The notes beneath the pieces were generated by a model that saw only the letters and a program-made list of their open reading frames with translations, was not told the origin of the DNA and did no database searches. A DNA stretch of 64,000 nt, from contig JAFKJB010000005.1 in the NCBI GenBank assembly GCA_017306155.1, forward strand, positions 124,001 through 188,000, given 5' to 3'. A program made the position numbers and the translations under genes. How positions within the stretch are numbered: position 1 is the stretch's first letter; each line of letters begins with the position of its first letter. Positions 7,093 through 63,709 of the stretch are shown here, piece after piece. The DNA comes from Nitrosospira multiformis (GTDB lineage: Bacteria; Pseudomonadota; Gammaproteobacteria; Burkholderiales; Nitrosomonadaceae).

Positions 7093-9927
7093 TCAGGTGA
7101 CCGAGTGAAAATTCTCCAGCATGTCCTTGAGGTGATGCCCGGTAAAACTCCTTTCATTTGCTGCTATTTCCTCCGGCGGTCCCTGTGCGATGATCTCGCC
7201 GCCGCCTTCGCCGCCTTCGGGACCGAGATCGATAATCCAGTCCGCAGTCTTGATCACATCCAGATTGTGTTCGATCACCACTACGGTATTGCCGTGGTCG
7301 CGCAATCGGTGCAGCACTTTGAGCAGGAGATCGATATCCTGGAAATGAAGCCCGGTGGTGGGCTCATCCAGAATATAGAGCGTACGCCCCGTGTCACGCT
7401 TGGAGAGTTCCAGCGACAGCTTCACCCGTTGCGCTTCGCCGCCTGAGAGCGTCGTCGCGGACTGGCCCAGGCTGATGTAACCCAGACCGACATCCAGCAA
7501 GGTCTGGAGCTTGCGCGCCACCACGGGTACGGGGCTGAAAAATTCATGCGCCTGCTCTACCGTCATCTGCAGGATTTCATGAATGTTCTTGCCCTTGTAT
7601 TGAATCTCCAGGGTTTCGCGGTTATAGCGCTTGCCGTGGCAGACATCGCATGACACGTAGATGTCGGGAAGAAAGTGCATTTCCACCTTGATCATGCCAT
7701 CCCCCTGACAGGCTTCGCAACGGCCCCCCTTCACATTGAACGAGAACCGCCCCGGCCCATAGCCGCGCTCCCGCGCCTGCGGCACACCGGCGAATAACTC
7801 CCGGATCGGAGTGAACAACCCGGTATAAGTGGCCGGATTCGAGCGCGGCGTGCGCCCGATCGGGCTTTGGTCCACGCTGATCACTTTGTCAAAAAACGCC
7901 AGTCCTTCCAGATTCTGATAGGGAGCGGGTTCGATTGCGCTGCCATAAAGATGCCGGGCAGCAGCCTGGTAGAGTGTTTCGTTGATGAGCGTGGATTTGC
8001 CCGAGCCGGATACACCGGTGACGCAAACGAACAGTCCCACCGGCAGGTTCAGGGTCACGTTTTTCAGATTGTTTCCCGAGGCGCCTTCAATCCGCAGCCA
8101 GCGGCCATTTTTAGCTTCGGTGCGTTTCTCGGGCACCCTTATGGTCAATTCGCCCGAGAGGTATTTTCCGGTAAGCGAACCGGCATCCCGCTGGATAGCT
8201 TCCGGCGTACCCTGCGCGATAATGGCGCCGCCATGCTCACCGGCTCCCGGACCCATGTCTACCACGTGATCGGCAGTCAGTATTGCATCCTGGTCGTGCT
8301 CCACCACGATCACGCTGTTGCCGAGATCGCGCAGGTTCTTGAGGGTTTTCAGCAGGCGGCTGTTGTCCCGCTGGTGCAGGCCGATGGAAGGCTCATCGAG
8401 CACATACATCACCCCGGTGAGACCTGACCCGATCTGGCTGGCAAGCCGGATGCGCTGGGATTCCCCCCCGGACAAAGTATCGGCGGACCGATCCAGCGAC
8501 AGGTAGTCCAGTCCGACATTGTTGAGGAATGATATACGGCTGGAGATCTCCTTGATGATCTTCTCTGCGATGGCAAGTTTATGACCGGTCAGTGTGATCT
8601 GGTCGAAAAAAACCTTCGCTTCTTTAAGCGGCAAGGCGTTGATCTCATATATTGCCATGCCGCCTACATGCACATGGCGCGCCTCCCGCCGCAAGCGCGT
8701 TCCAGTGCATTCGGGGCAGAGCTGCGAATTCAGATATTTCGCCAGTTCCTCCCGTACGGTAACTGAATCGGTTTCCTTGTAGCGCCGTTCCAGGTTGGGA
8801 ATGATTCCCTCGAACGTATGCTTGCGATAATTCCTCGACCCGTTTTCGTTCAGATACGAAAACATGATTTTTTCATTGCCGGATCCATTCAGGATGAGGT
8901 CCTGAATATGGCTGTTCAGTTGTTCGAAAGGCACTTCCAGATCAAAATCGTAATGGCTGGCCAGGCTCACCAGCAACTGATGATAAAACTGGTTGCGCCT
9001 GTCCCATCCCTTGATGGCGCCGGAAGCCAATGACAGATGCGGAAACGCGACGATCCGCCTGGGATCGAAGAAGGTGATCCTGCCCAGGCCATCGCATTTG
9101 GGGCAGGCGCCCATCGGGTTGTTGAACGAAAACAGACGCGGTTCCAGTTCGGGCAGCGAATAGCTGCATATCGGGCAACTGAACCTGGCTGAAAAAAGAT
9201 GCTCGGCGCCGGAGTCCATCTCTACCGCCAGGGCGCGCCCCTCGGCATGTCGCAGCGCTGTTTCGAATGATTCCGCCAGCCGCTGCTTCGAATCCGGCGA
9301 AACCTTGAGCCTGTCGATGACCACCTCGATCGTATGCTTCTGGTTTTTTTGCAGTTTGGGCAGGGCATCGATTTCGTATACGTTCCCGTCGACCCGCAAC
9401 CGGATGAAACCCTGGGCGCGCAGTTCATCGATCAAGTCCACCTGCTCGCCCTTGCGCCCCACTACCAGTGGCGCAAGTATCATCAGACGGGTATCCGGCG
9501 GCAGCCGCAGCACATGATCGACCATCTGGGAAACGCTCTGCACGGTCAGCGTGATGCCATGGTCGGGACACTGCGGATCCCCTGTCCGCGCGAAAAGCAG
9601 GCGCAGGTAATCATGTATTTCAGTGACAGTGCCGACAGTCGAGCGCGGGTTATGCGAAGTCGCCTTCTGCTCTATGGCGATGGCGGGCGATAATCCCTCG
9701 ATCAGGTCGACATCCGGCTTTTCCATCAATTGCAGGAACTGGCGGGCGTACGCCGAAAGCGATTCTACATAACGCCGCTGGCCCTCCGCATAAAGCGTGT
9801 CGAATGCCAGCGAAGACTTGCCCGATCCGGACAGACCCGTAATGACGACAAGCTTGTTGCGCGGCAGATCGAGATTGATATTTTTGAGATTGTGCGTGCG
9901 CGCACCGCGGATCTTGATGAGTTCCAT
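7093..9927 (-). CDS. uvrA: Excinuclease ABC subunit A
   Basis: Damage-recognition ATPase of nucleotide excision repair. It has two ABC modules: Walker [10 protein letters not shown] near residue 31 and GVSGSGKST near residue 640, with signature motifs [16 protein letters not shown] and [15 protein letters not shown]. The zinc modules [14 protein letters not shown]...CPKC and CEACQGDG...CDVCHGKRY are intact. The true start is the Met at 9927 ([16 protein letters not shown]) with AAAGGAG four bases upstream; the frame runs on to 10089 but that part is not conserved and would overlap the divergent gene. Length is 944 residues, as expected. A probable LexA box lies 83 bases upstream. Confidence 0.97.
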
Positions 9928-10009
9928 TGACTCCTTTCGCTGACGGTCCGGCGCCTGCTCATTGCCAGGTTCATCCACCGGGGCAACGCTACCTGAGAAC
10001 CGGCCAAAC

Positions 10010-10025
10010 CTGTTAATATACTCAA
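10010..10025 (-). promoter_or_regulatory. Putative LexA (SOS) box upstream of uvrA
   Basis: The sequence CTGTTAATATACTCAA has the CTG-N10-CAG layout of a LexA operator with one mismatch in the outer triplet and an A/T-rich centre. It sits in the 124-base divergent region between uvrA (minus) and the MFS gene (plus), 83 bases before the uvrA start. uvrA is a classical SOS gene, which supports the call. The site could also affect the MFS-ssb transcript. Confidence 0.5.
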
Positions 10026-10051
10026 GTTTCCGCGTTTTCCCAATCTGATTC

Positions 10052-11437
10052 ATGTCCCCCTCATCGTCTTCCGAGAAACTGTCATCCACAGAGATACGCG
10101 CGATCGCGGGCCTGGCGAGTATTTACGGCCTGCGCATGCTGGGGATGTTTATCATTCTCCCGGTATTCGCGTTTTACGCCGAACATCTGCCGGGAGGCGA
10201 CAACTACACGCTGGTCGGGATCGCCCTGGGGGCGTATGGGTTGACGCAGGCGATACTGCAGGTCCCGTTCGGCTGGCTGTCTGATCGCTTCGGCCGCAAG
10301 CCGGTGATTTATGGCGGCCTGCTCTTGTTCGCCCTGGGCAGTTTTGTCGCAGCCGCGGCAACGGACATTTACTGGGTAATCATTGGCCGTGTCATCCAGG
10401 GTGCAGGGGCAATTTCGGCGGCTGTGATGGCGCTTGCCGCGGATCTCACACGCGAAGAGCACCGCACCAAGGCAATGGCGGCGATCGGCATGACGATAGG
10501 GACTACCTTCGCGCTGTCGCTGGTCATTGCGCCGTCGCTTAACCGCATGATCGGCGTGCCCGGAATTTTTTTGATGACAGGCGTGCTGGTGCTGTTGGCA
10601 ATGGTCATAGTTTCGCGCGTGGTTCCCAACCCGACGGACAGCCGGTTTCATTCTGATACGGAAGCATCCGCCGGCCGATTTTCCAATGTTTTGCGAAATC
10701 CGGAACTGTTGCGGCTCGATTTTGGTGTCTTCGCACTGCACGCCGTACTGATGGCGCTGTGGCTGGTGGTGCCGCTATCGCTGCGGCAGGCAGGGCTCGC
10801 GGTGGATCATCACTGGCAAGTTTATTTTCCCGCGCTGGTCATTTCCATGCTGCTGATCATTCCAGTGATCATCTATAGCGAAAAGAAAGCAAAGCTCAAG
10901 CAGGTGTTTGTCATATCCGTGGCTGTGCTGCTGGCAAGCCAGATCCTGCTGGCTTATACATTCGATTCGATATGGGGCACCGCAGGGGCGCTGCTGGTAT
11001 TCTTCACTGCCTTCAACATGCTGGAAGCGACCCTGCCTTCACTCATTTCCAAGATCGCTCCCGTAGGGGCAAAAGGTACTGCCATCGGTGTCTATAGCAG
11101 CGTCCAGTTCCTGGGTACGTTTGTTGGCGCCAGCGCCGGGGGATACCTCTATCAGCATTACGGGAGTACCGCACTGTTTGCATTCTGTGGCGCGCTCCTC
11201 ATGTTCTGGCTGGTATTTGCCGTTACCATGAAGGCGCCCGCCGCTGTCCGCACCAGGATGTATCACGTGCAGGTAATGGATACCGGCGCTGCCCACGGGC
11301 TTTCGCGGCAACTGGCGGCACTGCCGGGCGTGCATGAGGCGCTTGTGCTTGCGGGCGAAGGGGTGGCTTACCTGAAAGTAGATATGCGCGGTTTTGATGA
11401 GCAGGGTGTGGCTCAATTACTTGGAGGGGAAGCATAA
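10052..11437 (+). CDS. MFS transporter, YajR-like with C-terminal YAM-type domain
   Basis: Twelve-helix major facilitator, probably a drug or metabolite proton antiporter of the inner membrane. The family loop motif A is [16 protein letters not shown] (about residues 72-87), and an [16 protein letters not shown] segment follows in helices 4-5. After the last helix (about residue 390) there is a soluble tail of about 70 residues. That tail ([21 protein letters not shown]...[15 protein letters not shown]) fits the small ferredoxin-like YAM domain known from E. coli YajR. Length is 461 residues against 454 in YajR. The stop codon abuts the ssb start, so the two are likely co-transcribed; uvrA / MFS / ssb is a common arrangement in betaproteobacteria. 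Confidence 0.85.
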
Positions 11438-48255: not shown

Positions 48256-48617
48256 GGGGGCGACCTGGCTTCGACGTGGGTTGCAAAGCAGAGCAGGGCA
48301 TACCGAGGACCAGTTACCTCGTAAATACATCTGGAAACCAATAGTCGCAAACGACGAAAACTACGCTCTAGCCGCTTAAATCCGGCTGGACTCCGCACCG
48401 GTGGGCCTCAACGCCGGGTCTGGCAACAGGCAGCGGAGCCATTAACGAGGATCGCGTCCGGTAGGGTTACTTTACAGGGCGTTAAACAATAGGTAACTCG
48501 CCTGTCATCAGTTCGCCGGTTGACGGATGCCAGGTTAAATTAAAAAACATGGCTAAGTATGTAGAACTGCCTGTAGAGGACTTGCGGACGCGGGTTCAAT
48601 TCCCGCCGCCTCCACCA
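48256..48617 (+). ncRNA. ssrA: tmRNA
   Basis: Begins GGGGGCGACCTGGCTTCGACG and ends with a T arm (GCGGG-TTCAATT-CCCGC) and CGCCTCC-A-CCA, whose acceptor strand pairs with the 5' GGGGGCG. The tag reading frame at 48347-48379 encodes ANDENYALAA followed by TAA (the resume Ala is supplied by the tRNA-like part), a typical betaproteobacterial tag. It rescues stalled ribosomes. The gene is complete, and an integrase gene begins 164 bases beyond its 3' end. Confidence 0.97.
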
Positions 48618-48780: not shown

Positions 48781-50043
48781 ATGCCCTTAACTGACACTGC
48801 AATACGCAATGCAAAGCCTGGCGCCAAGCCTGTCAAACTGTTTGATGAACGCGGCCTGTTCCTGATTGTTACCCCTTCAGGGGGTAAGTGGTGGCGCTTC
48901 CGTTATAAATTCGACGGCAAGGAAAAGCTGTTATCCCTGGGCGTCTACCCTGACGTACCCCTCGCCAGTCGCGTCGTGAAAGATGAAGAAATAGGCAAGA
49001 CCCGAAAGATTAAAGGTGCTCGTGAGCTTCGGGATGAAGCACGCGAGTTACTGGCTCAAGGCATTGACCCAGGAGAGAATCGCAAAGCGCAAAAAGCCAC
49101 TAAACAGAACCGGGCAGCAAACAGCTTCGAGGTCGTGGCGCGAGAATGGTATTCCAAATATGCCTCGTCCTGGTCGGAGGCTCATGGGGAACGCATTATC
49201 CGCCGTTTCGAGCGTGATGTTTTTCCTTGGATTGGTGGACGCCCGATCGCCGACATGGCTGCACCTGAATTGCTGTCTGTTGCGCGACGAATTGAGAGTC
49301 GTGGTGCATTGGAAACTGCTCACCGGGCGCTCGCAAATTGTGGGCAGGTATTCCGATACGCAGTGGCAACAGGGCGAGCGGATCGTGACCCATCTGGCGA
49401 TTTGCGCGGTGCACTCCCCCCAGTAAAAGGCGAACACTTCGCCGCTGTTACGGAGCCCAAGCAGGTAGGACAATTGCTGAGAACACTGGATGGCTACGAA
49501 GGCACCTTCATAGTTGCCTGCGCACTGCGTCTTGCACCACTGGTGTTTGTGCGTCCTGGCGAACTTCGTAAGGCCGAATGGAAGGATATTAATCTTGATG
49601 CGTGCGAATGGCGTTACACGGTAACGAAGACGGGCACGCCACATATCGTTCCCCTATCAACACAAGCGGTGTCGATCCTGCGGGAGCTTCACGCCCTGAC
49701 AGGAACCGGCCGCTTTGTCTTTCCCGGTGCACGCAGCTACGCGAGACCGATGAGTGATAACGCGATTCTTGCGGCAATGCGACGTATGGGCATATCGAAA
49801 GATGAAATGAGCGGGCATGGGTTTCGAGCGATGGCCCGAACAATCCTAGATGAAGTGCTGGGAGTGCGTCCTGATCTCATCGAACACCAGCTAGCCCATG
49901 CCGTGAGAGACCCGAACGGCCGGGCCTACAACAGAACCGCTCACCTTCCAGAACGACGGAAGATGATGCAGCAATGGGCGGATTATCTGGACAAGTTGAA
50001 AGCCGGGGCGGAAGTGGTTCGACTCCGAGGAAACATAGCATAA
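48781..50043 (+). CDS. int: Tyrosine-type site-specific integrase (P4-like)
   Basis: 420 residues. The N-terminal DUF4102 arm-binding domain (MPLTDTAIRNAKPGAKPVKLFDERGLFLIVTPSGGKWWRFRYKFDGK) is followed by a core-binding domain (about 110-200) and a catalytic domain. The catalytic residues are Arg in FVRPGELRKAEW (about 261), HGFR (about 349-352), the second His in EHQLAHAV and the Tyr in AYNRTAH (about 381). All are intact, so it should be active. Adjacent ssrA is the expected attachment gene; this family commonly integrates at the 3' end of tRNA or tmRNA genes. Confidence 0.95.
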   Translation: MPLTDTAIRNAKPGAKPVKLFDERGLFLIVTPSGGKWWRFRYKFDGKEKLLSLGVYPDVPLASRVVKDEEIGKTRKIKGARELRDEARELLAQGIDPGENRKAQKATKQNRAANSFEVVAREWYSKYASSWSEAHGERIIRRFERDVFPWIGGRPIADMAAPELLSVARRIESRGALETAHRALANCGQVFRYAVATGRADRDPSGDLRGALPPVKGEHFAAVTEPKQVGQLLRTLDGYEGTFIVACALRLAPLVFVRPGELRKAEWKDINLDACEWRYTVTKTGTPHIVPLSTQAVSILRELHALTGTGRFVFPGARSYARPMSDNAILAAMRRMGISKDEMSGHGFRAMARTILDEVLGVRPDLIEHQLAHAVRDPNGRAYNRTAHLPERRKMMQQWADYLDKLKAGAEVVRLRGNIA

Positions 50044-51388: not shown

Positions 51389-51790
51389 ATGGTACAGCAA
51401 CTCCAAACAGCGCTAGTCATTCTGCGCCTTAAACAAATCCTCGCCCGAACAGGGCTTTCCCGTTCCTTCATATATCAGAAAATGGCCGAGGGCCTGTTCC
51501 CCGAAAGTGTGCGCCTGGGTGCACGGACGGTGGGTTGGATCGAGAGCGAAATAGAAGCATGGATTGCCGCCCAAGTCGAAAAAAGTCGCAAAGGCTCGAC
51601 GGTGGCAACCAAGAACGCAACTGCTGTTGAGGCGCCGGAAGCTGTAGGGTCCGCTATATCAGGAGCGCACGATCTAGACATAGCCTCTTCCATACCGCGA
51701 CCTCAATCGTCTATACCGCGTGCTGGACCGCCATCTCCGTCTAGAAGAGTCCCTGGTCCATCAAAACGGCGAGGGCAAAGCGATGCTTAG
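51389..51790 (+). CDS. AlpA-family transcriptional regulator
   Basis: MerR-like winged HTH of the AlpA (phage/satellite) family: LRLKQILARTGLSRSFIYQKMAEGLFPESVRLGARTVGWIESEIEAWIAAQVEKSR at about 10-68. The remaining 65 residues are low-complexity, rich in Ser, Pro and Ala. AlpA-type proteins control excision and replication of P4-like satellites. AGGAG precedes the ATG, and it overlaps the start of the primase-helicase gene by eight bases. Confidence 0.88.
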   Translation: MVQQLQTALVILRLKQILARTGLSRSFIYQKMAEGLFPESVRLGARTVGWIESEIEAWIAAQVEKSRKGSTVATKNATAVEAPEAVGSAISGAHDLDIASSIPRPQSSIPRAGPPSPSRRVPGPSKRRGQSDA

Positions 51791-54623
51791 TCCCGTCGAG
51801 CAATTTAGTAATGCCATTCAAGCTGCAGGGCTTACCCCTCCCCAAATGATAGAAATGGATGGGAAGCTTCATCGTTTTTCCACCAACGGCAAGCCCGATG
51901 ATGATGCCGGCTGGTATGTACTTTACAACGACGGCATACCGGCGGGCGCCTTTGGAGACTGGCGGCTCGGGGTCGACTATAAATGGCAAGCCGATATAGA
52001 TCGCCCCCTCACCCGCGTCGAGGAAGAAGAACACCGCGCCAAACTGGAAGCAATGAAGCATTTGCGCGAGGTGGAGCAAAACAGGCGTAGAGAAGAGGCG
52101 CGGGAGCAGGCAAATCTTATTTGGGACGAAGCGGTGCCGTGCGCAAGCCACTCCTACCTCGCCGCTAAGGAGGTTGGAGCGAACGGAGTCCGATTGTTCC
52201 GAGGTGAGCTTGTAATCCCGCTCAGAGGGAGGGGCAAACTTCATTCCCTCCAATTCATCAGCTCCAACGGCGACAAAAGGTTCTTGCCAGGGGGACGTGT
52301 TTCAGCCTGCTATTTCAGTATTGGAAGCCCAAACGGCAAGGATGCATTATGCATTGCCGAAGGATTTGCTACCGGCGCCAGCATTCATGAAGCAACAGGT
52401 CTTCCAGTAGCGGTGGCCTTTAACGCCGGGAACCTTAAAGCAGTAGCAATAGCAATACGGGGATCCTTCCCTAAGCTATCCTTGATCCTGTGTGCAGACG
52501 ATGACCATGCTACACCCGGCAATCCCGGACTAGCCAAGGCGAGAGAAGCGGCAAAGGCGGTGAACGGGCAAGTGGCGGTGCCTGACTTTGAATCGAACAG
52601 GCCAAGCTGGGCAACGGATTTCAATGACATGGCAAAACTGCGAGGGAAGGAAGCTGTCAAGCTGGCAATAATGAGTGTGGCAGCTTCCATAGCCGACCAA
52701 GGAGGTGGTGACGAGCAAGGAGATAATGAGCAAAAGGCGACAGCGGATTTCCAGAGTTTGAGTCTTTCTTCTGCGTCATCAGATATCGGGGTATCACAGG
52801 TAGCAGAGGTGCAAGCCAATGGTGGCGCGCTTTGCGTTGTTACCCCTGCCAGTAGTGCTGAGGTAGCACAGGTAGCAGATAGCACAGTCAGTACAGCCAA
52901 CCCCATTCCAGACATTGCTGATCGACCCACCTTCCGCGTCTTTGATGAGGGGTTGGAGCATGGCGGCGAGAAATTGCGGCCAGGCGTGTGGCATTTTGGC
53001 ACCGACAAGGAGGGAAACCCACTTCAAACCTGGATTTGTTCTCCGCTCCATGTTGAGGCCGTCACCTATGACGGGCAGGACAACCACTTCGGGCGGATGT
53101 TGCGCTTCAAAAACACGAATGGTGGATGGCGCGAGTGGGCGATGCCCATGCAAATGCTCGCCGGTACTGGGGATGAGTTGCGGGGTGAGTTGCTGTCGAT
53201 GGGCGTGGAAATCGACCCTTCCCCCAACGCACGCCGTCTGCTCTCTGCCTATCTGCAAGCCAAACCACCGAAACGACGTATCCACTGTGCCCTCCAGGTT
53301 GGCTGGTGCGAGGATTCCTTCGTGTTGCCCGATACGGTCATCGGACCGAAGGCATCAGGGTTGATCTTCCAAAGTGGGGAGTGTATTCACGATGAACATA
53401 CGACAGGGGGAATGCTTGCTGGCTGGCAAAGCGAAATAGCTGCTCGGGCAGGAGGTAACCCCCTATTGCTGCTTGCCCTGTCAACTGCATTTTCCGGGCC
53501 GCTGCTCGCCAAATGCAATGCGGAAGGCGGTGGATTGCATTTTGTCGGTGACTCCTCCACAGGCAAGACAACGCTCCTTGAAGCTGCATGTTCTGTTTGG
53601 GGTGGTGCGAATTACCGCAGAAGCTGGCGAGCAACTGCCAACGGCATGGAAGGCGCGGCGGCCCTATTCAATGACTGCCTTCTCGCGCTGGATGAAATCA
53701 GCGAGTGTAATCCCAACGAGGTCGGGAACATTGTCTATGCCTTGGGTAATGGGCGCGGCAAGCAGCGCGCCAGTCGTACTGGAAGCCCTCGAGCATTGAC
53801 GCGATGGCGCTGCATGGTCTTATCAAGCGGTGAGCGCACCATTGAAACCACCATGCAGGAAGGCGGGAACAAGGCCAAGGCTGGGCAGGCCGTTCGGATG
53901 CTCGACCTCCAAGTGGCACGTACTTTTGGCGCGTGGGATAACCTCCATGGTCTACCAAGTGGTACGGCCTTTTCTGATGCAATCAAGCGGGCAGCGGCCA
54001 CACATCATGGACATGCAGGTCGTGCCTTCCTTGAAAAGCTCACCCGCGACGGTCGCGACTTCTGCGCTCTTCTCGAACGCATCAAGGGGCTGCGGGAATT
54101 CTCTGTCCAGGGAAGCGAAGGACAGGAAAAAAGGGCTGCGGCACGCTTTGCCCTCATTGCGCTTGCTGGTGAAATAGCAACCGAATACGGCATAACCGGC
54201 TGGCCCCCAGGGGATGCAATCCAAGCGGCAGCGTTGGCTTTCAATGCATGGAGAGCTTCTCGGGGGCGAGGCAACAGTGAGCGAATACAAGTTCTCGAAC
54301 GGCTTCGTGAATTCATAGACCGGCACGGGGATTCGCGGTTTTCCGACAAGGATGCCAAAGGCGATATTCCGGTCCGTGATCGAGCCGGATGGTGGCAGGA
54401 CACTCCAGATGGCCGTATCTATCTTTTTTCCGCAGGTGGGTTACACGAAGCGGTCAAGGGATTTGACTATGACCGGGCGCAAGACCTCCTGGCGGAAGTC
54501 GGGGTATTACCACCTCGTGACGCGGAGGGGAAGCACTCCAGGACTTCCCGTATCAATGGGAAATCGACAAGATCGTATCCAATAGACCTGAGCAAACTGG
54601 GAGACGATTATGGAACGGCTTGA
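51783..54623 (+). CDS. Satellite replication protein: Toprim primase + DUF927 helicase-like ATPase
   Basis: 946 residues. The N-terminal part resembles the D5/phage primase accessory region. A Toprim domain lies at about 185-300 (DALCIAEGFATGASIHEATGLPVAVAFNAGNL ... LILCADDDHATPGNPGLAKAREAA), the metal-binding core of DnaG-type primases. After a Ser/Val/Ala-rich linker (about 315-375), a DUF927 P-loop ATPase spans about 400-760 with Walker A GDSSTGKTT (about 589-597) and Walker B CLLALDEIS (about 633). Such fusions initiate replication of P4-like elements. The start is Met 51783; the frame is open to 51720. Confidence 0.88.
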   Translation: MLSPVEQFSNAIQAAGLTPPQMIEMDGKLHRFSTNGKPDDDAGWYVLYNDGIPAGAFGDWRLGVDYKWQADIDRPLTRVEEEEHRAKLEAMKHLREVEQNRRREEAREQANLIWDEAVPCASHSYLAAKEVGANGVRLFRGELVIPLRGRGKLHSLQFISSNGDKRFLPGGRVSACYFSIGSPNGKDALCIAEGFATGASIHEATGLPVAVAFNAGNLKAVAIAIRGSFPKLSLILCADDDHATPGNPGLAKAREAAKAVNGQVAVPDFESNRPSWATDFNDMAKLRGKEAVKLAIMSVAASIADQGGGDEQGDNEQKATADFQSLSLSSASSDIGVSQVAEVQANGGALCVVTPASSAEVAQVADSTVSTANPIPDIADRPTFRVFDEGLEHGGEKLRPGVWHFGTDKEGNPLQTWICSPLHVEAVTYDGQDNHFGRMLRFKNTNGGWREWAMPMQMLAGTGDELRGELLSMGVEIDPSPNARRLLSAYLQAKPPKRRIHCALQVGWCEDSFVLPDTVIGPKASGLIFQSGECIHDEHTTGGMLAGWQSEIAARAGGNPLLLLALSTAFSGPLLAKCNAEGGGLHFVGDSSTGKTTLLEAACSVWGGANYRRSWRATANGMEGAAALFNDCLLALDEISECNPNEVGNIVYALGNGRGKQRASRTGSPRALTRWRCMVLSSGERTIETTMQEGGNKAKAGQAVRMLDLQVARTFGAWDNLHGLPSGTAFSDAIKRAAATHHGHAGRAFLEKLTRDGRDFCALLERIKGLREFSVQGSEGQEKRAAARFALIALAGEIATEYGITGWPPGDAIQAAALAFNAWRASRGRGNSERIQVLERLREFIDRHGDSRFSDKDAKGDIPVRDRAGWWQDTPDGRIYLFSAGGLHEAVKGFDYDRAQDLLAEVGVLPPRDAEGKHSRTSRINGKSTRSYPIDLSKLGDDYGTA

Positions 54624-56644: not shown

Positions 56645-57580
56645 ATGGCATCGATCATCCCTGAGAACTCTGACACATTGATGCGTATGGCGGCGTTCAA
56701 CCATGTCCGCAGGCTTGGAGAAATCCACGCTCACCTCACAGCGGCCGAGTTGAACCCAGGTTTTGTCTTCCAAGGAGAGCGATTTCCGCTCATTAATCCG
56801 CAACGCGGCATTTTCAAGCCTCAACAGATGCGGTATCTGCTGTCGATCAAGACTGTATTTCCCAAGCCGGGAGCAAAGGTCTGGTACGACGACCAGCGCG
56901 ACGTGCATCGCCAGATTTTCGAGGGTGATGAGACAGTGGATTATGCTTTTATGGGCCAGAATCCGGACGCCGCCGACAACCATTGGCTTCGGGAGGCATT
57001 TGAAAACCACATACCGATCATTTACTTTCTCGGTATTGCGCCCGGGCGCTATCAAGCCGTGTTGCCGGTCTTCATTTCTGGGTGGGATGCCAAGGCCTTA
57101 AAGGCACGCGTCGCATTCGGCGTTACCGATCAGGCGGTGCTTGCACCGCCGGAGAATGCCCTCGAACGACGCTATGCCCTGCGTGCGGTCAAACAACGCC
57201 TCCATCAGGCTTCTTTTCGCGAGGCGGTCATCACGGCCTACAACGGTCGGTGCGCTCTGTCTGGATTACCGGGGGCGTTGTTGCTGGATGCCGCGCACAT
57301 CATCCAAGACAAAGACGAGAAGTTCGGCCAGCCAGTCGTGCCGAATGGCATCCCGTTATCCAAAATTCATCACGCCGCATTTGACGCGCATCTGATTGGT
57401 ATTGACCCGGACTATCGATTGCACGTCTCGGAACGTCTGCTAGTGCAGAAAGATGGTCCCATGCTCGAAGCCCTGAAGCGACTGGACGGTGGGATGCTTC
57501 ATCTGCCTGTGCGCAGCAAAGACCGGCCGGATCGCGATCGGCTGGCACAACGGTACGAGCGATTCGTGGCGGCGACTTGA
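56645..57580 (+). CDS. Standalone HNH restriction-type endonuclease
   Basis: 311 residues. The C-terminal HNH domain at about 200-265 reads FREAVITAYNGRCALSGLPGALLLDAAHIIQDKDEKFGQPVVPNGIPLSKIHHAAFDAHLIGIDP: AHI, PNGIPL and HHAAFD supply the H-N-H residues, though the zinc cysteines common in the fold are mostly absent. The N-terminal 180 residues (RLGEIHAHLTAAELNPGFVFQGERFPLINPQRGIFKPQQMRYLLSIKTVF) form a separate domain that I read as a specificity or modified-base reader module. The layout is as in COG3440-type predicted restriction enzymes. No methyltransferase is adjacent, fitting modification-dependent defence. Confidence 0.78.
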   Translation: MASIIPENSDTLMRMAAFNHVRRLGEIHAHLTAAELNPGFVFQGERFPLINPQRGIFKPQQMRYLLSIKTVFPKPGAKVWYDDQRDVHRQIFEGDETVDYAFMGQNPDAADNHWLREAFENHIPIIYFLGIAPGRYQAVLPVFISGWDAKALKARVAFGVTDQAVLAPPENALERRYALRAVKQRLHQASFREAVITAYNGRCALSGLPGALLLDAAHIIQDKDEKFGQPVVPNGIPLSKIHHAAFDAHLIGIDPDYRLHVSERLLVQKDGPMLEALKRLDGGMLHLPVRSKDRPDRDRLAQRYERFVAAT

Positions 57581-57909: not shown

Positions 57910-58929
57910 TCAAACTGCTTCCAAGGAAGAATGAGCATTTACACCTGCGGTAACGGTGTAGTCGATGTTTCCGGTTGTGCCTTTTCTTATCAATGCCGGC
58001 CCTTGCTGAAAGGCCCATATTCCCATGTTGTCATGACGCAGATTTCGGCTGCTGTTGAAAAATGCCCGAACCATAATGGGACCTGTTGTCGGGCCTGTGA
58101 TTGAATTTATCCTGATCCTGTAGCTCGGCGTATTCCCATTGGGCCGTCCAGCATCATCTGAATGAATGGAGTCGAACACCGGCATTGCGGGACTCAGTGA
58201 GCGAGGCGTGACTGGCAGCAGCAGATTCGTCAATGAGGAATCGTAGGATAATGTCACGACATCGTTTTCTACGTGCAGACGAAGTGCGTCAACATCATGC
58301 CGGACATTGTCAATAAACATGGTGGAAATCTGGAGGAGCCGCACTGACTCGAACGTTCTTGCCTGCATGGGATCCGGTATCACGTCCTCTGTGAATTCAA
58401 ACGTACCTGCCACGTGGAGTATGGTAGCGAGGTCATGCGGCTCTTCCAGGGTCAAGAGCCAGGTGAGCGCCATGATCTGATTGGTCGTGCCGCTTTTGAG
58501 TAAACGATTTGCGCGAGAGGCCGTAATCCTGATCAGCAATCTGCCCGTGCCATTCTGATTGAGCTGGGAGGTGTCAATGGCAACGCGCTCCAACTGGGGA
58601 TGAAAGAATAGGGTCTTTTTTGGACATGAAGTCGATGTGCCGGAGATTGCCGGGCCGAGGACCAGGCTCTGACCGAACGGCAGCGGCGGGGTGGGATCAG
58701 CTCCGGGCTTAAGCCGCAGATAACCGGAAGAGTAGAGAACAAAAACCTGGGGGAAACGGCTTGGATTGGATACGCGCTTCGCAAGGGATAAAAGCCTGGC
58801 CCTCCCCATGGGCCTGCCGTTGACCAGGACTTCGAATGGATCTTCGGGAATGAACGCCCGCAGCTTTTTTATCACCCACACTCCGTCATTAAACACCCCT
58901 GACTTATTCAAAGCGTTCTCGTCTTCCAA
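57910..58929 (-). CDS. Unknown 339-residue island protein
   Basis: No family recognised. The sequence is rich in short beta-type stretches (VFVLYSSGYLRLKPGADPTPPLPFG; GRLLIRITASRANRLL; VVTLSYDSSLTNLLLPV; IMVRAFFNSSRNLRH), with few helices and no signal peptide or membrane segment. Pro and Gly are frequent. This suggests a mostly-beta fold, such as a surface, lectin-like or phage-structural protein. It ends with a variable Gly/Ala/Ser segment. Confidence 0.6.
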   Translation of the reverse strand: MEDENALNKSGVFNDGVWVIKKLRAFIPEDPFEVLVNGRPMGRARLLSLAKRVSNPSRFPQVFVLYSSGYLRLKPGADPTPPLPFGQSLVLGPAISGTSTSCPKKTLFFHPQLERVAIDTSQLNQNGTGRLLIRITASRANRLLKSGTTNQIMALTWLLTLEEPHDLATILHVAGTFEFTEDVIPDPMQARTFESVRLLQISTMFIDNVRHDVDALRLHVENDVVTLSYDSSLTNLLLPVTPRSLSPAMPVFDSIHSDDAGRPNGNTPSYRIRINSITGPTTGPIMVRAFFNSSRNLRHDNMGIWAFQQGPALIRKGTTGNIDYTVTAGVNAHSSLEAV

Positions 58930-59410: not shown

Positions 59411-59725
59411 TTAAGGGGCGCGACTTTTTATCAAAGCCGGATTTCTGCGATGGTGCAGACAGGCAATGACAACAGGCTCCTCTTCTACCTTGAACCATAT
59501 TCCGTAGGGGAATCGCTTCATATTTGCCCGCCGTGCATCTTTAACTAATACCGGATAGAGCTGGGAATTGCTTTCAATCATGGCCAAGGTTTCCCCGACT
59601 TTGGCGACAAAATCAGCCCCTAATCCCAGACGCTGCTTTTCGTACCAGTCTCTTGCTTGAGCAATATCATTAAATGCTTGAAGGGTGACGATCAAGGCGT
59701 AAGCCGACGCAGTGCGTCCCTCCAC
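59411..59725 (-). CDS. RelE/ParE-family toxin
   Basis: 104 residues. Pattern: FNDIAQARDWYEKQRLGLGADFVAKVGETLAMIESNSQLYPVLVKDARRANMKRFPYGIWFKVEEEPVVIACLHHRRNP, with the typical ParE/RelE helix hairpin and the final beta-strand HHRRNP. The start is a GTG at 59725, inside the antitoxin gene (34-base overlap). Target (ribosome-bound mRNA or gyrase) cannot be decided from sequence. Confidence 0.87.
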   Translation of the reverse strand: MEGRTASAYALIVTLQAFNDIAQARDWYEKQRLGLGADFVAKVGETLAMIESNSQLYPVLVKDARRANMKRFPYGIWFKVEEEPVVIACLHHRRNPALIKSRAP

Positions 59726-59901
59726 GGCGTAGCAGTTTTCTTGTCTTCATCGTATGTCTTCAAACGGGACTCCACTTCATTCCTTACCTCTGGAGAAACC
59801 GGAATCTGTTCCTCCTCAAGACTTTCCGATAGTAGGTCCATCAGCTCAAGTTTTTGGTCGGCTGTAAGTGCCTTTACGTCATCCCTGGTTAACATTCTCA
59901 T
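59692..59901 (-). CDS. Antitoxin of RelE/ParE pair (addiction module, CHP02574-like)
   Basis: 69 residues: LTADQKLELMDLLSESLEEEQIPVSPEVRNEVESRLKTYDEDKKTATPWRDALRRL. This matches the short all-helical antitoxins that pair with ParE/RelE toxins (LS.eErleL...LW.S...). It precedes and overlaps the toxin, the usual order. It starts immediately at the end of the decayed resolvase gene, overlapping by four bases. Confidence 0.82.
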   Translation of the reverse strand: MRMLTRDDVKALTADQKLELMDLLSESLEEEQIPVSPEVRNEVESRLKTYDEDKKTATPWRDALRRLTP

Positions 59902-60480
59902 GAATTTGCCCCTCCTTCTAAGCTGGCACTCCGGGCATGTGGAATATGGCGATATAACGTTGAGGGCGCAACCCTTAACCGGCCTGCAACCGCAGCAACA
60001 GAAATATTGGGGTCCTTCAGCATAGCTTTGGCCGCTTGTAGATCCTCAGCCGAGCTGTAGGCCTGCCGCCGATGCGACCCCGTTCCCAAGCGGACTTCAA
60101 GCCTGCCTTGGTCTGATCCCGGATGACCCCTCGTTCAAACTCGGCCAGTGCTGCAAAAATATGGAAGACTAGCTTTCCACTTGCCGAACTGGTGTCAATT
60201 GAGTCTTGCAAGGATTTCAGGCCGATCCTCCGTCCTTCAAAATCCTCGACCGTCTCAATCAGTTGTTTCATGGACCGGGCAAGACGATCAAGTTTCCAGA
60301 CTATAAGAATATCCCCTTCACGCATGTATGACAGCGCGGCCTTCAGTTCCGGCCTGTCCCGTTGTTGCGCACCGGAAGCTTTTTCCTGAAGATTTTCTCG
60401 CACCCTTCTTTAGTTAGAACATCGAGCTGTAAAGCCAAATCCTGATCCTGGTACTTACCCATGCGTATCCGATTTTTATT
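59898..60480 (-). pseudogene. Serine resolvase/invertase, multiply frameshifted
   Basis: All parts of a Pin-type serine recombinase can be read in order but in different frames. KIGYAWVST at 60454-60480 has the start codon reading ATA and Arg replaced by Trp next to the catalytic Ser. DQDLALQLDVLTKEGCEKIF follows after a one-base loss. QEKASGAQQRDRPELKAALSYMREGDILIVWKLDRLARSMKQLIE...SAWERGRIGGRPTA follows in the frame of 60017-60403. The HTH tail SSAEDLQAAKAMLKDPNISVAAVAGRLRVAPSTLYRHIP is in the frame of 59898-60089. Three frameshifts plus loss of the start codon make it inactive. Confidence 0.85.
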
Positions 60481-60826: not shown

Positions 60827-63709
60827 ATGCAAGGAAAAACACCTAAGCGCTTTCGTGAAGCCATCGAAAGGGCACACGGGCAAGTCGAAACAGTAATGGG
60901 AATTCTCGATCGCCACTCCAATGAAAGAGACTGGAACCTTGGTCCAGAATTCACAAAAGCATCGGCGGATTTAAAGGCATTGCTTGAAAGAAATGCTGTA
61001 CCGGCAGAATACAAAGTGGCGGTAGTGGGTCGTTTCAAAGTGGGCAAGTCCGCCTTCGTAAACGAGTTACTCGGGCAGCGCCTAGCCGGGGAAGACACAA
61101 ATCCTGAAACTGCAGCTGTAACTACATTCACCCACGGATCGCCAGTCAAGGCGACAGTTCGATTTGTCTCCAAGGCGAACTGGGTAGAGTTAAAGAAACT
61201 ATATGAAAGTAATTCCGCCGATCCAGATGCTCAACGAGTAAAAACATGGTTCGGGCTCGAAGGAAAGGACTCCAAGACGACGCCAGCAGGTGAGCAACAA
61301 CGTTTTGATCTGAAGGAATTGGAACAGCAGTTCGTGCGGGAAAGCGGCTACGCCATTGATATTGTCCTGAACGCTGCGTTAGGGAAGAAAGGGGAGGCCG
61401 ATTTCCGTCGAAAAGTAAAGGAATTCACCACAGGAACAAAGCCGCACCATTGTCTTGTTGAGACCATAGAGGTAATTGCACCATCGGCAATATTGAACGA
61501 GGGTGTCGTCATTATCGACACACCAGGTATCGACGACACCGAGAGGTTTCGCGTTGCCCGCACGGAGAAAGCGGTAGAGAACGTTGATGCGATTCTTTTT
61601 CTGACCAAGTCGGGAGCGTCTTACAGTCAGTCGGAGAAAGACTTCCTACTTTCTTTACTGCGCAAAGGCACTGTCAAGCAATTGATCTTTGTTATTACGC
61701 AGGTGGACCAGACGTACGACCAGCATATGCGGCAGAGCCGAGATCAGGATGAAGACCCTGAATCGATCGCGAAACGAATCGACAGGGAGAAGACTAGAAT
61801 CCTTGCAGAAATCGATGGGACCCTGAATGACTTATCGCGGGACGCCGACGACGCTTCGATGATTCGTTATCGCGAGCAGTTCGCCAATGCCTTGATTGAG
61901 TTCACCTCCGCTGCAAACCACCGAGATGCCCAGCAAGGTGAGACGGTGAAATATCCGTTGGTGGACGGGGATCCAGGAGGTATTAATCGAGTGCAGCGGG
62001 CTCTATTCGAAACACTATCCACGGAATCGCGGTTGGCCGCAACCGCTCGAAGCATCGAGGCCGGGGTCCGCACGATCCTTGACGCTCAACTGCGTCTCTT
62101 GGAGAGCCGCCGCAGTGCAATTAAGCGCTTGAAAAATAGGGAGGTGGCTGAGAAAGGGCTTGCGACCTTTCGCGATCAATTTGGAAAGGCTGGCGAAGAG
62201 TTTTCGAAAGCGGTAGCGGCAGACATCAAATTCCTAACGGCGGCTTTCACCCAGCGAGACAAGTTGGCTACCATGGCGATCGAAAACCTTTCATTGAACG
62301 CAGAAATAGTGCTCGCGGAATATGAGACTAACGACGCTGGGCGACATTGGCGAAGCCGACGTTCAGGCTATTGGGGTTACATGCACGATTTGCAATCGCG
62401 CGTGGCAAACAAAATATTTCCCGCAGTTGCAACCTTGCTTGGCGGCTATACGGATGAATTGAACGGCTATGTAGCCAAGTTCAAAGTACATCTTAGCGCC
62501 CTTTCCTCGGCGAGCACGCGCATTGCGGATGATCTCGATCTGGAGGCAGAGATTTCCTTCGAGCTAGAGGCGAGACTCGAAGGGGCTCTTACTGAAATGC
62601 TTGAGAGCACTCAGTTGCTGATTGAAGGCGAAGAGCAGCAAATTTCGAAGCTGCTGGACGAGTTTGTGACGGAAGACGTAGAAGAACGTATCTCCGCGGC
62701 ACGAGAAAAGGTTTCATCCGTATGGGGGCGTGGCACAACCGGTGGACAAACCAGTGAAGTTCGTCGATTCTACATGGAGGTCAAGTCCATTCTCAGAGAA
62801 GCGCTAAAAGAATATATTGAAGCGCGCCGCAAGGATTTTGTCGAAACGCTCTCAGATGCGGCAAGTGGCCTACCAGATCGTGCATTAAGCGAAGCGCGCG
62901 CAGAATTGACATTGGCACAGGAGAGCATCCGCGCCGCCGCGGAAGCTGCGCTGCACGGACGTAAAGAAGCATTTGAGCGCTTGGCCAAGGAGGTGGAGGA
63001 GTCGATTGTGGTCACGCTCCAAGAGGCTGGAAAGATATTTGCAGATGAAGGGACCCGGTCGGCCGAGGCGATTGATGGCCCGACGACTAGCATCACATCC
63101 TTTGCTACCGCGAGCCCGAGCGCCGCTCCGATTGCGATTGGCGCCATTCCATCAGTGGAGATTGACAGCGAATCAGGATTGGGCATCAAGGCACCATGGG
63201 CTAAGTCTGTGAAGGAAGCAGCAACGCAACTTGTTGCGCGTTTCGTACTGGAGGACGGCGAGAATAAATGGCCTTGGAGAAAAGTATTTGAGGCACGCTT
63301 TGTAGAGGGCAGTGAGAAGGCGTTGGTCGTTGATCCCTATCTTTCAAAACCTCATCAGATGAGGAATCTTCGTGAGTTCATATTGCGAATCTCGGAAACT
63401 GGCACCCTAAAGCAACTATGCATTATCACGGGTTCCGAATTCCAAGATTCGGTTGGAGATGACTCTCGCTTGCGAGAACTGGCGCATCATCTCATGCAGG
63501 AAAATAACATTGATCTGAATTGGGATAGAGACAAGACGAATCACGATCGATTTGCAATTTTTGATACCGGTGCCGTTTTCAAGCTAGGGCGAGGCCTGGA
63601 CATCTATAAGCCCTCGACTGGTCTCGCGAGAAATGATCCTGCTCTGCGAAAGGTCCGAAAATGTGAGATCGACGTGTTTGGCCCGCAAGGCAAATGGGAA
63701 TCGAAATGA
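60827..63709 (+). CDS. Dynamin-like GTPase with C-terminal MITD1-like (PLD-type) domain
   Basis: 960 residues. The GTPase domain of the bacterial dynamin superfamily spans about 60-400: P-loop GRFKVGKS (68-75), switch Thr in ETAAVTTFTHG, DTPG (231-234) followed by IDD, and TQVD (291-294). A long helical stalk-like region follows (about 410-770) with no obvious transmembrane helix. At about 825-957 is a separate domain: ALVVDPYLSKPHQMRNLREFILRI, QLCIITGSE, NHDRFAIFDTGAVFKLGRGLDIYK and the ending VRKCEIDVF. HDR, GRGLD and the final RxCxxxVF-like motif are what I know from the C-terminal domain of human MITD1, a phospholipase-D-like fold that binds membranes. The protein is predicted to act on membranes. 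A stop-start overlap (ATGA) with a very short following frame suggests that a partner gene was lost or truncated. Confidence 0.85.
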   Translation: MQGKTPKRFREAIERAHGQVETVMGILDRHSNERDWNLGPEFTKASADLKALLERNAVPAEYKVAVVGRFKVGKSAFVNELLGQRLAGEDTNPETAAVTTFTHGSPVKATVRFVSKANWVELKKLYESNSADPDAQRVKTWFGLEGKDSKTTPAGEQQRFDLKELEQQFVRESGYAIDIVLNAALGKKGEADFRRKVKEFTTGTKPHHCLVETIEVIAPSAILNEGVVIIDTPGIDDTERFRVARTEKAVENVDAILFLTKSGASYSQSEKDFLLSLLRKGTVKQLIFVITQVDQTYDQHMRQSRDQDEDPESIAKRIDREKTRILAEIDGTLNDLSRDADDASMIRYREQFANALIEFTSAANHRDAQQGETVKYPLVDGDPGGINRVQRALFETLSTESRLAATARSIEAGVRTILDAQLRLLESRRSAIKRLKNREVAEKGLATFRDQFGKAGEEFSKAVAADIKFLTAAFTQRDKLATMAIENLSLNAEIVLAEYETNDAGRHWRSRRSGYWGYMHDLQSRVANKIFPAVATLLGGYTDELNGYVAKFKVHLSALSSASTRIADDLDLEAEISFELEARLEGALTEMLESTQLLIEGEEQQISKLLDEFVTEDVEERISAAREKVSSVWGRGTTGGQTSEVRRFYMEVKSILREALKEYIEARRKDFVETLSDAASGLPDRALSEARAELTLAQESIRAAAEAALHGRKEAFERLAKEVEESIVVTLQEAGKIFADEGTRSAEAIDGPTTSITSFATASPSAAPIAIGAIPSVEIDSESGLGIKAPWAKSVKEAATQLVARFVLEDGENKWPWRKVFEARFVEGSEKALVVDPYLSKPHQMRNLREFILRISETGTLKQLCIITGSEFQDSVGDDSRLRELAHHLMQENNIDLNWDRDKTNHDRFAIFDTGAVFKLGRGLDIYKPSTGLARNDPALRKVRKCEIDVFGPQGKWESK

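What the first reader, a model, noticed from the sequence alone, without database searches (positions are those of the whole stretch)
60827..63709. Dynamin-like GTPase fused to a MITD1-C-like phospholipase-D-type domain
Seen: a complete dynamin-type GTPase core (GRFKVGKS, DTPG, TQVD), a long helical middle, and a distinct C-terminal 130 residues with VDPYLS, NHDR, GRGLD and a terminal RKCEIDVF motif. Known: human MITD1's C-terminal domain has HDR, GRGLD and RPC...VDIF motifs, adopts a PLD-like fold, binds membranes and works with ESCRT-III in abscission. Inference: in one bacterial polypeptide, a membrane-remodelling motor is joined to a eukaryote-like membrane-binding module and carried on a mobile satellite island. 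Bacterial dynamins have been linked to membrane protection and phage resistance, so this could be a one-gene (or once two-gene) defence or membrane-repair system.
Basis: partly seen in the sequence, partly recalled or inferred. Interest (0 to 1): 0.88.

Follow-up and report, generated by a model that had tools for sequence, protein, structure and literature searches.

The report
Dynamin carrying a BREX BrxL-type tail
A bacterial membrane-type motor protein (a dynamin) carries at its end a domain known from a human cell-division protein and from an anti-phage protein called BrxL, and most of its known relatives sit inside or beside anti-phage gene clusters, so it looks like an undescribed, possibly membrane-acting helper of DNA-modification-based phage defence.

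Summary
60827-63709 (+) is an intact 960-aa gene: dynamin GTPase (Pfam E 6e-23), helical stalk and a C-terminal MIT_C/PLD-like domain (E 1.7e-22). A medium-confidence AlphaFold model matches bacterial dynamins and MITD1. The 'eukaryote-like' label needs turning round: all 17 other full-length MIT_C matches above cut-off in the two genome samples were BrxL of the BREX anti-phage system, and MITD1 is closer to the one BrxL tested (138.8 bits) than to this protein (34.6 bits). Ten relatives were found (41-47% identity). Eight of 11 loci, own included, lie beside modification-dependent defence genes: BREX genes in three, DUF499/Hma-type in four, type I RM here. In two the dynamin is inside or at the end of a BREX operon. 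Partners differ: zinc-finger/coiled-coil/Hsp70 (4), GHKL ATPase (2), ResIII helicase (2), none recognised (3). Best reading: a rare auxiliary effector of BREX-like and RM defence that acts at the membrane, with MIT_C for recognition or docking. The defence link is well supported; the mechanism is inferred. A 2026 BREX survey does not mention dynamins in its main text.

The parts
60827..63709 (+). dynamin-MIT_C gene, 960 aa, intact
61016..61702 (+). Dynamin_N GTPase domain, residues 64-292
   Evidence: E 6e-23; motifs
61742..63034 (+). helical stalk, residues 306-736, long helices in the model
   Evidence: fold match to BDLP, the 5oxf/5owv dynamin pair and SynDLP
62336..62431 (+). conserved basic-aromatic segment, residues 504-535 (HWRSRRSGYWGYMHD core), around the loop between two long helices; candidate membrane-contact tip (inference)
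63278..63679 (+). MIT_C PLD-like domain, residues 818-951
   Evidence: E 1.7e-22; MITD1 E 2e-6; MITD1 TMt 0.78
63542..63601 (+). H906-x-R908 and R922-G-L-D925, invariant in 10 dynamin MIT_C rows and nearly so in 19 BrxL rows
48256..48617 (+). tmRNA gene at the left border of the island
48781..50043 (+). tyrosine integrase next to the tmRNA
51720..54623 (+). DUF927/Toprim primase-type protein of the mobile element
56645..57580 (+). HNH endonuclease (HNH_2), PADLOC HNH, same island

Best explanation
The protein is an auxiliary effector of DNA-modification-dependent anti-phage defence (BREX, DUF499-centred BREX-related/Hma systems, type I RM). Shown: domain make-up, fold match, purifying selection, and recurrent linkage to such systems, with partner genes that largely follow the dynamin tree. 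Inferred: MIT_C, the module that caps one class of BrxL, recognises a signal of infection (DNA, phospholipid or a partner protein at the injection or replication site) through its conserved H-x-R / R-G-L-D site. The GTPase then assembles at the inner membrane, perhaps through the basic-aromatic tip at residues 504-535, and holds or remodels it, so that DNA entry, phage replication at the membrane or lysis is blocked or delayed. In relatives a chaperone-like ATPase partner (Hsp70 or GHKL) may load or reset the assembly. The window copy has no recognised partner and would work alone or with the type I RM genes 320 bp downstream.
For: Pfam, PDB and fold matches. Own locus: HsdM, HsdS, GmrSD, HsdR directly downstream on the same strand. 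L026: brxA-brxB-brxC-DYN-pglX-GmrSD-ZnF-X-Hsp70-pglZ-brxL, all co-directional. L027: brxA-brxB-brxC-pglX-pglZ-brxL-DYN-ZnF-X-Hsp70, small ORFs left out. L023: DUF499-DUF1156 MTase-PLD helicase-DYN-ZnF-X-Hsp70. BREX/BR/RM genes in 8 of 11 dynamin loci against 1 of 30 control stretches (limits in Tried and rejected). MIT_C shared with BrxL: 11 of 11 full-length MIT_C frames in relatives other than the own gene and all 6 others above cut-off in the phylum sample. Hsp70 and ResIII partner types each form a supported clade. Selection. B. subtilis DynA gives phage protection by delaying lysis (PMC8844932, abstract).
Against: No experiment. Three of 11 loci (L017, L024, L025) have no BREX/BR/RM hit, though L024/L025 carry a ResIII helicase gene, the L024 one PADLOC REase_III-like. 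In L021, L022 and L028 the defence genes are on the opposite strand, so only proximity is shown; in L020 no DUF499 ATPase was seen, and L028 shows DUF499 alone at a contig end. The own genome has no PglZ or DUF499 match, so BREX is not required. L025 lacks MIT_C yet keeps its helicase partner, so MIT_C is not always needed. No strongly hydrophobic segment: the highest 19-residue mean is 1.32 in this protein and 1.58 in any member. Model confidence is modest (pLDDT 70, pTM 0.43). Defence islands gather unrelated genes.
Confidence: 0.5

Rival explanations
1. A GTP-regulated nuclease effector: MIT_C is an active HKD-type (H-R-D) DNase as proposed for BrxL, and the dynamin part is a self-assembling switch that brings nucleases together on invading DNA; the membrane is not involved.
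For: PMC12839542 (section 19 read) reports 1030 instances among 2913 type 1 BREX taxa with BrxL in which the Lon domain is replaced by an HKD-endoDNase with a K-to-R change, and predicts activity. That this is the MIT_C domain is my inference from position and motif. H and R are kept in 10 of 10 dynamin MIT_C rows, and D925 of RGLD in 10 of 10 dynamin and 19 of 19 BrxL rows. No hydrophobic paddle. Neighbours are DNA-defence systems.
Against: The motif Asp (913) is Asp in only 5 of 10 dynamin rows (N in 2, G in 3), against 16 of 19 BrxL rows. MITD1, whose PLD fold 'binds membranes' by the title of a 2012 paper seen in a reference list (paper not held), also has N at this place (alignment). L025 lacks MIT_C.
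Confidence: 0.2
2. A stand-alone abortive-infection dynamin: the protein disrupts the inner membrane on infection, and the DNA-modification systems are only island neighbours.
For: The window copy, L017 and L028 have no recognised partner gene; L017 has no BREX/BR/RM hit. The neighbouring defence type changes within one dynamin clade (BREX genes in L021, L026, L027; DUF499 type in L023).
Against: In L026 the dynamin lies between brxC and pglX and its ZnF-X-Hsp70 partners between GmrSD and pglZ, which is hard to explain by loose proximity. MIT_C is shared with BrxL.
Confidence: 0.2
3. A membrane-stress or repair dynamin of the island, not an immune gene; defence neighbours reflect the hotspot.
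For: B. subtilis DynA has a membrane surveillance role besides phage protection (abstract). L024 and L026 both have a tRNA-Ser(GCT) near a gene that looks by eye like lysC.
Against: 8 of 11 loci against 1 of 30 controls; gene order inside BREX operons.
Confidence: 0.08

Closest known systems
BrxL of type 1 BREX with C-terminal PLD-like domain (MIT_C; by inference the 'HKD-endoDNase' of PMC12839542)
   Same: Same C-terminal domain with conserved DP, Q, N, T, HxR and RGLD; both occur in BREX settings
   Different: BrxL is an AAA+ DNA-binding protein; here the module is on a dynamin GTPase. The 10 dynamin MIT_C rows form one side of a branch (100/99) apart from 19 BrxL rows. In the two BREX loci where brxL was seen (L026, L027) it is the Lon type
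MITD1 (human)
   Same: MIT_C domain, fold match TMt 0.78, 21% identity
   Different: No MIT domain in the Pfam scan here; no ESCRT-III link known; MITD1 is closer to the BrxL tail tested
Bacterial dynamin-like proteins (BDLP, the 5oxf/5owv pair, SynDLP)
   Same: GTPase motifs and helical stalk; top fold matches
   Different: MIT_C tail, no strongly hydrophobic segment, defence-operon context
B. subtilis DynA (anti-phage dynamin)
   Same: Dynamin linked to phage resistance (PMC8844932, abstract)
   Different: NCBIfam DynA model 40.9 bits against a cut-off of 1600
Eleos (LeoA/LeoBC)
   Same: Defence-linked dynamin GTPase (recalled)
   Different: PADLOC LeoBC matches only over the GTPase, 40.7 bits; no Leo partner among the neighbours scanned

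Membership tests
Dynamin superfamily | GTPase motifs G1, G3, G4 and dynamin profile | tested here: met
   Dynamin_N in 11 of 11 members
Dynamin superfamily | helical stalk/neck like solved dynamins | tested here: met
   Foldseek BDLP E 3e-17, 5oxf/5owv pair, SynDLP; but whole-chain TM-scores are only 0.2-0.36 and model pTM 0.43
Dynamin superfamily | membrane binding and nucleotide-dependent assembly | not testable with these tools
   no hydrophobic paddle found; conserved basic-aromatic tip only suggestive
MIT_C (PF16565) domain family | profile match above curated cut-off and PLD-like fold | tested here: met
   80.3 bits against 25; MITD1 TMt 0.78
MITD1 | N-terminal MIT domain that binds ESCRT-III | tested here: not met
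   no MIT domain in the Pfam scan
HKD/PLD nuclease | HxK(R)x4D motif | tested here: inconclusive
   H 10/10, R 10/10, Asp 5/10 in dynamin rows; RGLD Asp 10/10
BREX core component | present with PglZ/BrxC/PglX as a constant part of the system | tested here: not met
   BREX genes at 3 of 11 dynamin loci; own genome without a PglZ match
Eleos (LeoA/LeoBC) | full-length Leo proteins encoded as a pair | tested here: not met
   GTPase-only match; no partner in the PADLOC/Pfam scans of the neighbours chosen
DynA (NCBIfam NF052648) | equivalog cut-off | tested here: not met
   40.9 bits against 1600

The most novel reading that the evidence does not exclude
MIT_C is a transferable 'infection-site' module of BREX-type immunity. 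Carried on BrxL it directs a DNA motor; carried on this dynamin it directs a membrane motor, giving modification-dependent defence a membrane-remodelling arm with its own Hsp70 or GHKL chaperone. The eukaryotic ESCRT cofactor MITD1 inherited the same module from a bacterial anti-phage protein.
Probability: 0.22. Interest if true: 0.88.

Novelty: new variant of a known kind. Interest (0 to 1): 0.68.

Why it matters
BREX and its relatives are widespread, yet how they stop phages is unsettled; the parts that I read of a 2026 catalogue of their auxiliary effectors name nucleases only. A dynamin in the same operons, bearing a domain that caps BrxL, would add a membrane step and give a direct test of what that domain recognises. 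It also links a human cell-division cofactor to a bacterial immune protein.

Tried and rejected
Eukaryotic origin of the domain: not supported as the default, because MITD1 is closer to a BrxL tail than to this protein (one BrxL tested). Eleos or DynA membership: rejected. Phage-borne gene: no match in phages and none confirmed in three viral-contig scans, which look only at places with a pattern hit. BREX in the own genome: no match. Right attachment site: not found. Fold of the coiled-coil partner (gene X): model too poor to use (pLDDT 58.7). Gene X in plasmids: none. A plasmid search with the GHKL protein gave 29 records, whereas full-length dynamin was found in one plasmid record, so GHKL proteins also occur without this dynamin. 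Viral fold library: dynamins of giant viruses only at low TM-score, no MIT_C lead. Promoters and terminators: no excess over shuffles.

Limits. The genome-contig scan used only two peptide patterns, so nine loci are an undercount. Profile searches at E 1e-30 found 1 of 369 genomes in the class sample (the own one) and 3 of 399 in the family sample of G202, all already known. Of the 14 genomes with a match, two were dropped: L015 (73-aa frame) and L016 (below cut-off). In one search four of 11 genomes were below the cut-off and dropped. Of the 19 BrxL rows, 18 match BrxL outside the tail too; L019 is a 220-aa unannotated frame in a BREX locus that matches BrxL only over the tail. L053 (an ABC-type ATPase by eye) was dropped from the rows before that count.

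Control: the reference proteins come partly from the test loci themselves (their identity rests on PADLOC, Pfam and one annotated record). Of 40 control stretches requested, 6 did not exist and 4 shorter than 2.9 kb were dropped, leaving 30 (452 kb against 243 kb of test loci; recounted). They were chosen by contig number, not at random, and several are short. Four (L079, L080, L081, L091) lie on the same contigs as a dynamin locus; the one control with a hit (L079, HsdM and HsdR) is one of these. One search stopped at a malformed entry, so its last references were not searched. Residue strings and charges printed were shifted by a gapped copy of the sequence; one search gives the right ones. 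coordinates beyond 64000 are one base too high. 'C. jejuni', 'Nostoc' and 'human' for PDB entries are recalled.
Full report
What is there. The gene at 60827-63709 (+) encodes 960 residues without interruption. Pfam finds Dynamin_N at 64-292 (E 6e-23) and MIT_C at 818-951 (E 1.7e-22), both above curated cut-offs. PDB sequence search gives bacterial dynamins (5owv, 2j68) for the GTPase and MITD1 (4a5z, 2ymb) for 808-951. An AlphaFold2 model from nine sequences has mean pLDDT 70 and pTM 0.43, so domain placement is uncertain. Foldseek ranks BDLP, the 5oxf/5owv dynamin pair, SynDLP, IniA and truncated mitofusins first, and matches the tail to MITD1 (4a5z) with target TM-score 0.78 and rmsd 3.7-3.8.

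Surroundings. The window is 124001-188000 of a 197593-base contig of an unnamed 3.0-Mb genome. To the left lie tmRNA, an integrase and a DUF927/Toprim primase-type protein, then an HNH nuclease and a resolvase that matches only positions 37-144 of its Pfam model. To the right, outside the window and on the same strand, are HsdM, HsdS, a GmrSD-type protein and HsdR, starting 320 bp after the dynamin stop. MIT_C occurs once in this genome. In the MIT_C search of 199 genomes, own included, 14 had a match: the own gene, the only one with a dynamin-length frame; 11 with a BrxL-length frame; one 73-aa fragment; one below cut-off. The own genome has no PglZ and no DUF499 match at E 0.001.

Relatives. 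One plasmid record (Thiodictyon pTs485, 44% identity, annotated 'MIT C-terminal domain-containing protein') and nine genome loci L020-L028 encode full-length or nearly full-length relatives, 41-47% identical to the query. None was found in phage records or in three viral-contig scans. MIT_C is in 10 of 11 members; L025 ends before it, 16 bp ahead of the next gene. In the nine genomes of these loci MIT_C above cut-off is seen once in eight, in the dynamin, and not at all in the ninth (L025's); one more match in L027's genome is below cut-off. GTPase, stalk and MIT_C are under purifying selection and the linker much less so, in the pairs where synonymous change was not saturated.

Gene order. 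L026 reads brxA-brxB-brxC-DYN-pglX-GmrSD-ZnF-X-Hsp70-pglZ-brxL, all on one strand. L027 reads brxA-brxB-brxC (L039, L027), pglX-pglZ-brxL-DYN-ZnF-X-Hsp70, small ORFs left out. In both the BrxL is of the Lon type. L023 reads DUF499, DUF1156 methylase, PLD helicase, DYN-ZnF-X-Hsp70. L021 has BrxC and a PsyrT-like helicase on the other strand, a BrxH-like helicase further off (L040), and DYN-ZnF-X-Hsp70. L020 has an HmaB-like methylase and a BrxHI/HmaA-like helicase upstream and a GHKL ATPase 2 bp downstream. L022 has the same kind of GHKL gene 1 bp downstream, with HmaC/DUF499 and DUF1156-like genes divergent. L024 and L025 have a ResIII helicase directly after the dynamin. L028 has DUF499 divergent. 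L017 has none of these. So 8 of 11 loci carry BREX, DUF499/Hma-type or type I RM genes, against 1 of 30 control stretches from the same genomes (limits in Tried and rejected). In the dynamin tree the four Hsp70 loci form a clade (98/94) and the two ResIII loci another (100/100); the two GHKL loci lie with partnerless L017 in a supported but unresolved group of three; the own row is a long branch. The defence type changes inside the Hsp70 clade. Gene X was found in 1 of 399 genomes of one family, the one that has it beside the dynamin.

The tail domain. All 11 full-length MIT_C frames in relatives other than the own gene are BrxL by phmmer against an annotated BrxL. In the phylum sample 7 of 398 genomes pass the cut-off: the own one and six BrxL. 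On plasmids, five records matched only over the tail, four of them annotated brxL. Dynamin MIT_C rows form one side of a branch with support 100/99. Conserved in the 10 dynamin and 19 BrxL rows: D836 (9/10, 19/19), P837, Q844, T868, H906, R922, G923, L924, D925 (10/10, 19/19) and R908 (10/10, 18/19). The Asp of the proposed H-R-D motif is kept in 5 of 10 dynamin rows and 16 of 19 BrxL rows. MITD1 scores 138.8 bits against the BrxL tail of Thioflavicoccus and 34.6 bits against this protein.

How it may work. Shown: a dynamin GTPase, a PLD-like tail shared with BrxL, recurrent defence loci, selection on both domains. Inferred: membrane action, from the family and from a segment (504-535) whose core is as conserved as some GTPase motifs, basic and aromatic, and placed around the loop between two long helices; and recognition by MIT_C. 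No strongly hydrophobic insertion segment is seen, so binding would be peripheral. The partners suggest an ATPase that loads or resets an assembly (inference). The nuclease reading of the tail stays open.

What is known. Read in PMC12839542: abstract, outline, sections 19, 28, 40 and part 1 of 2 of section 35, plus term hits; its supplements were not seen. It reports 1030 instances of BrxL with a C-terminal HKD-endoDNase among 2913 type 1 taxa, and auxiliary nucleases; 'dynamin', 'GTPase', 'Hsp70' and 'GHKL' occur 0 times in its main text. PMC12715929 (passage) repeats from an earlier study that PF16565 belongs to BREX systems, so that link is known. PMC12629846 (passages) lists other 'Dynamins' and Hma in one Pseudomonas hotspot. 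PMC8844932 (abstract and outline) shows DynA delaying lysis. PMC11090510 (passages) shows Hsp70-like units in McrBC-type systems. PMC10164562 (passages) gave nothing on a PLD-like BrxL tail. No paper describing a dynamin with MIT_C, or a dynamin inside BREX, appeared in the listings of searches; several of these showed only the top of long lists, and the library lacks most subscription papers.

Verdict. Real and unusual domain fusion; defence association well supported; mechanism open. New variant of a known kind (an auxiliary gene of BREX-like and RM defence), interest 0.68.

Noticed in passing
L018:14935-15414: MITD1's C-terminal domain is very close to the BrxL tail of a bacterial BREX plasmid (138.8 bits, E 1.4e-39), which suggests that a eukaryotic ESCRT cofactor shares descent with an anti-phage protein.
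   Followed up: partly
window 60017-60403: Resolvase on the minus strand matches only Pfam positions 37-144 of 145, so its start seems to be missing; it lies just upstream of the dynamin.
   Followed up: no
window 59411-59901: A small minus-strand pair that looks by eye like a RelE/ParE toxin with its antitoxin.
   Followed up: no
window 57910-58929: 339-aa minus-strand ORF with no Pfam or PADLOC match, in the island.
   Followed up: no
L024:13861-13953 and L026:3280-3372: Both dynamin islands lie near a tRNA-Ser(GCT) next to a gene that looks by eye like lysC, perhaps one integration hotspot.
   Followed up: partly
L023:14057-15346, L021, L026, L027: Conserved partner (gene X, coiled coil, no clear family) between a C2H2-like zinc-finger protein and an Hsp70-like protein; in the family sample searched it occurs only in the genome that has it beside this dynamin.
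   Followed up: partly
L003:7890-8939 and 9240-10344: Genes after the type I RM operon without Pfam match; a transposase-like frame, by eye, ends the contig.
   Followed up: no
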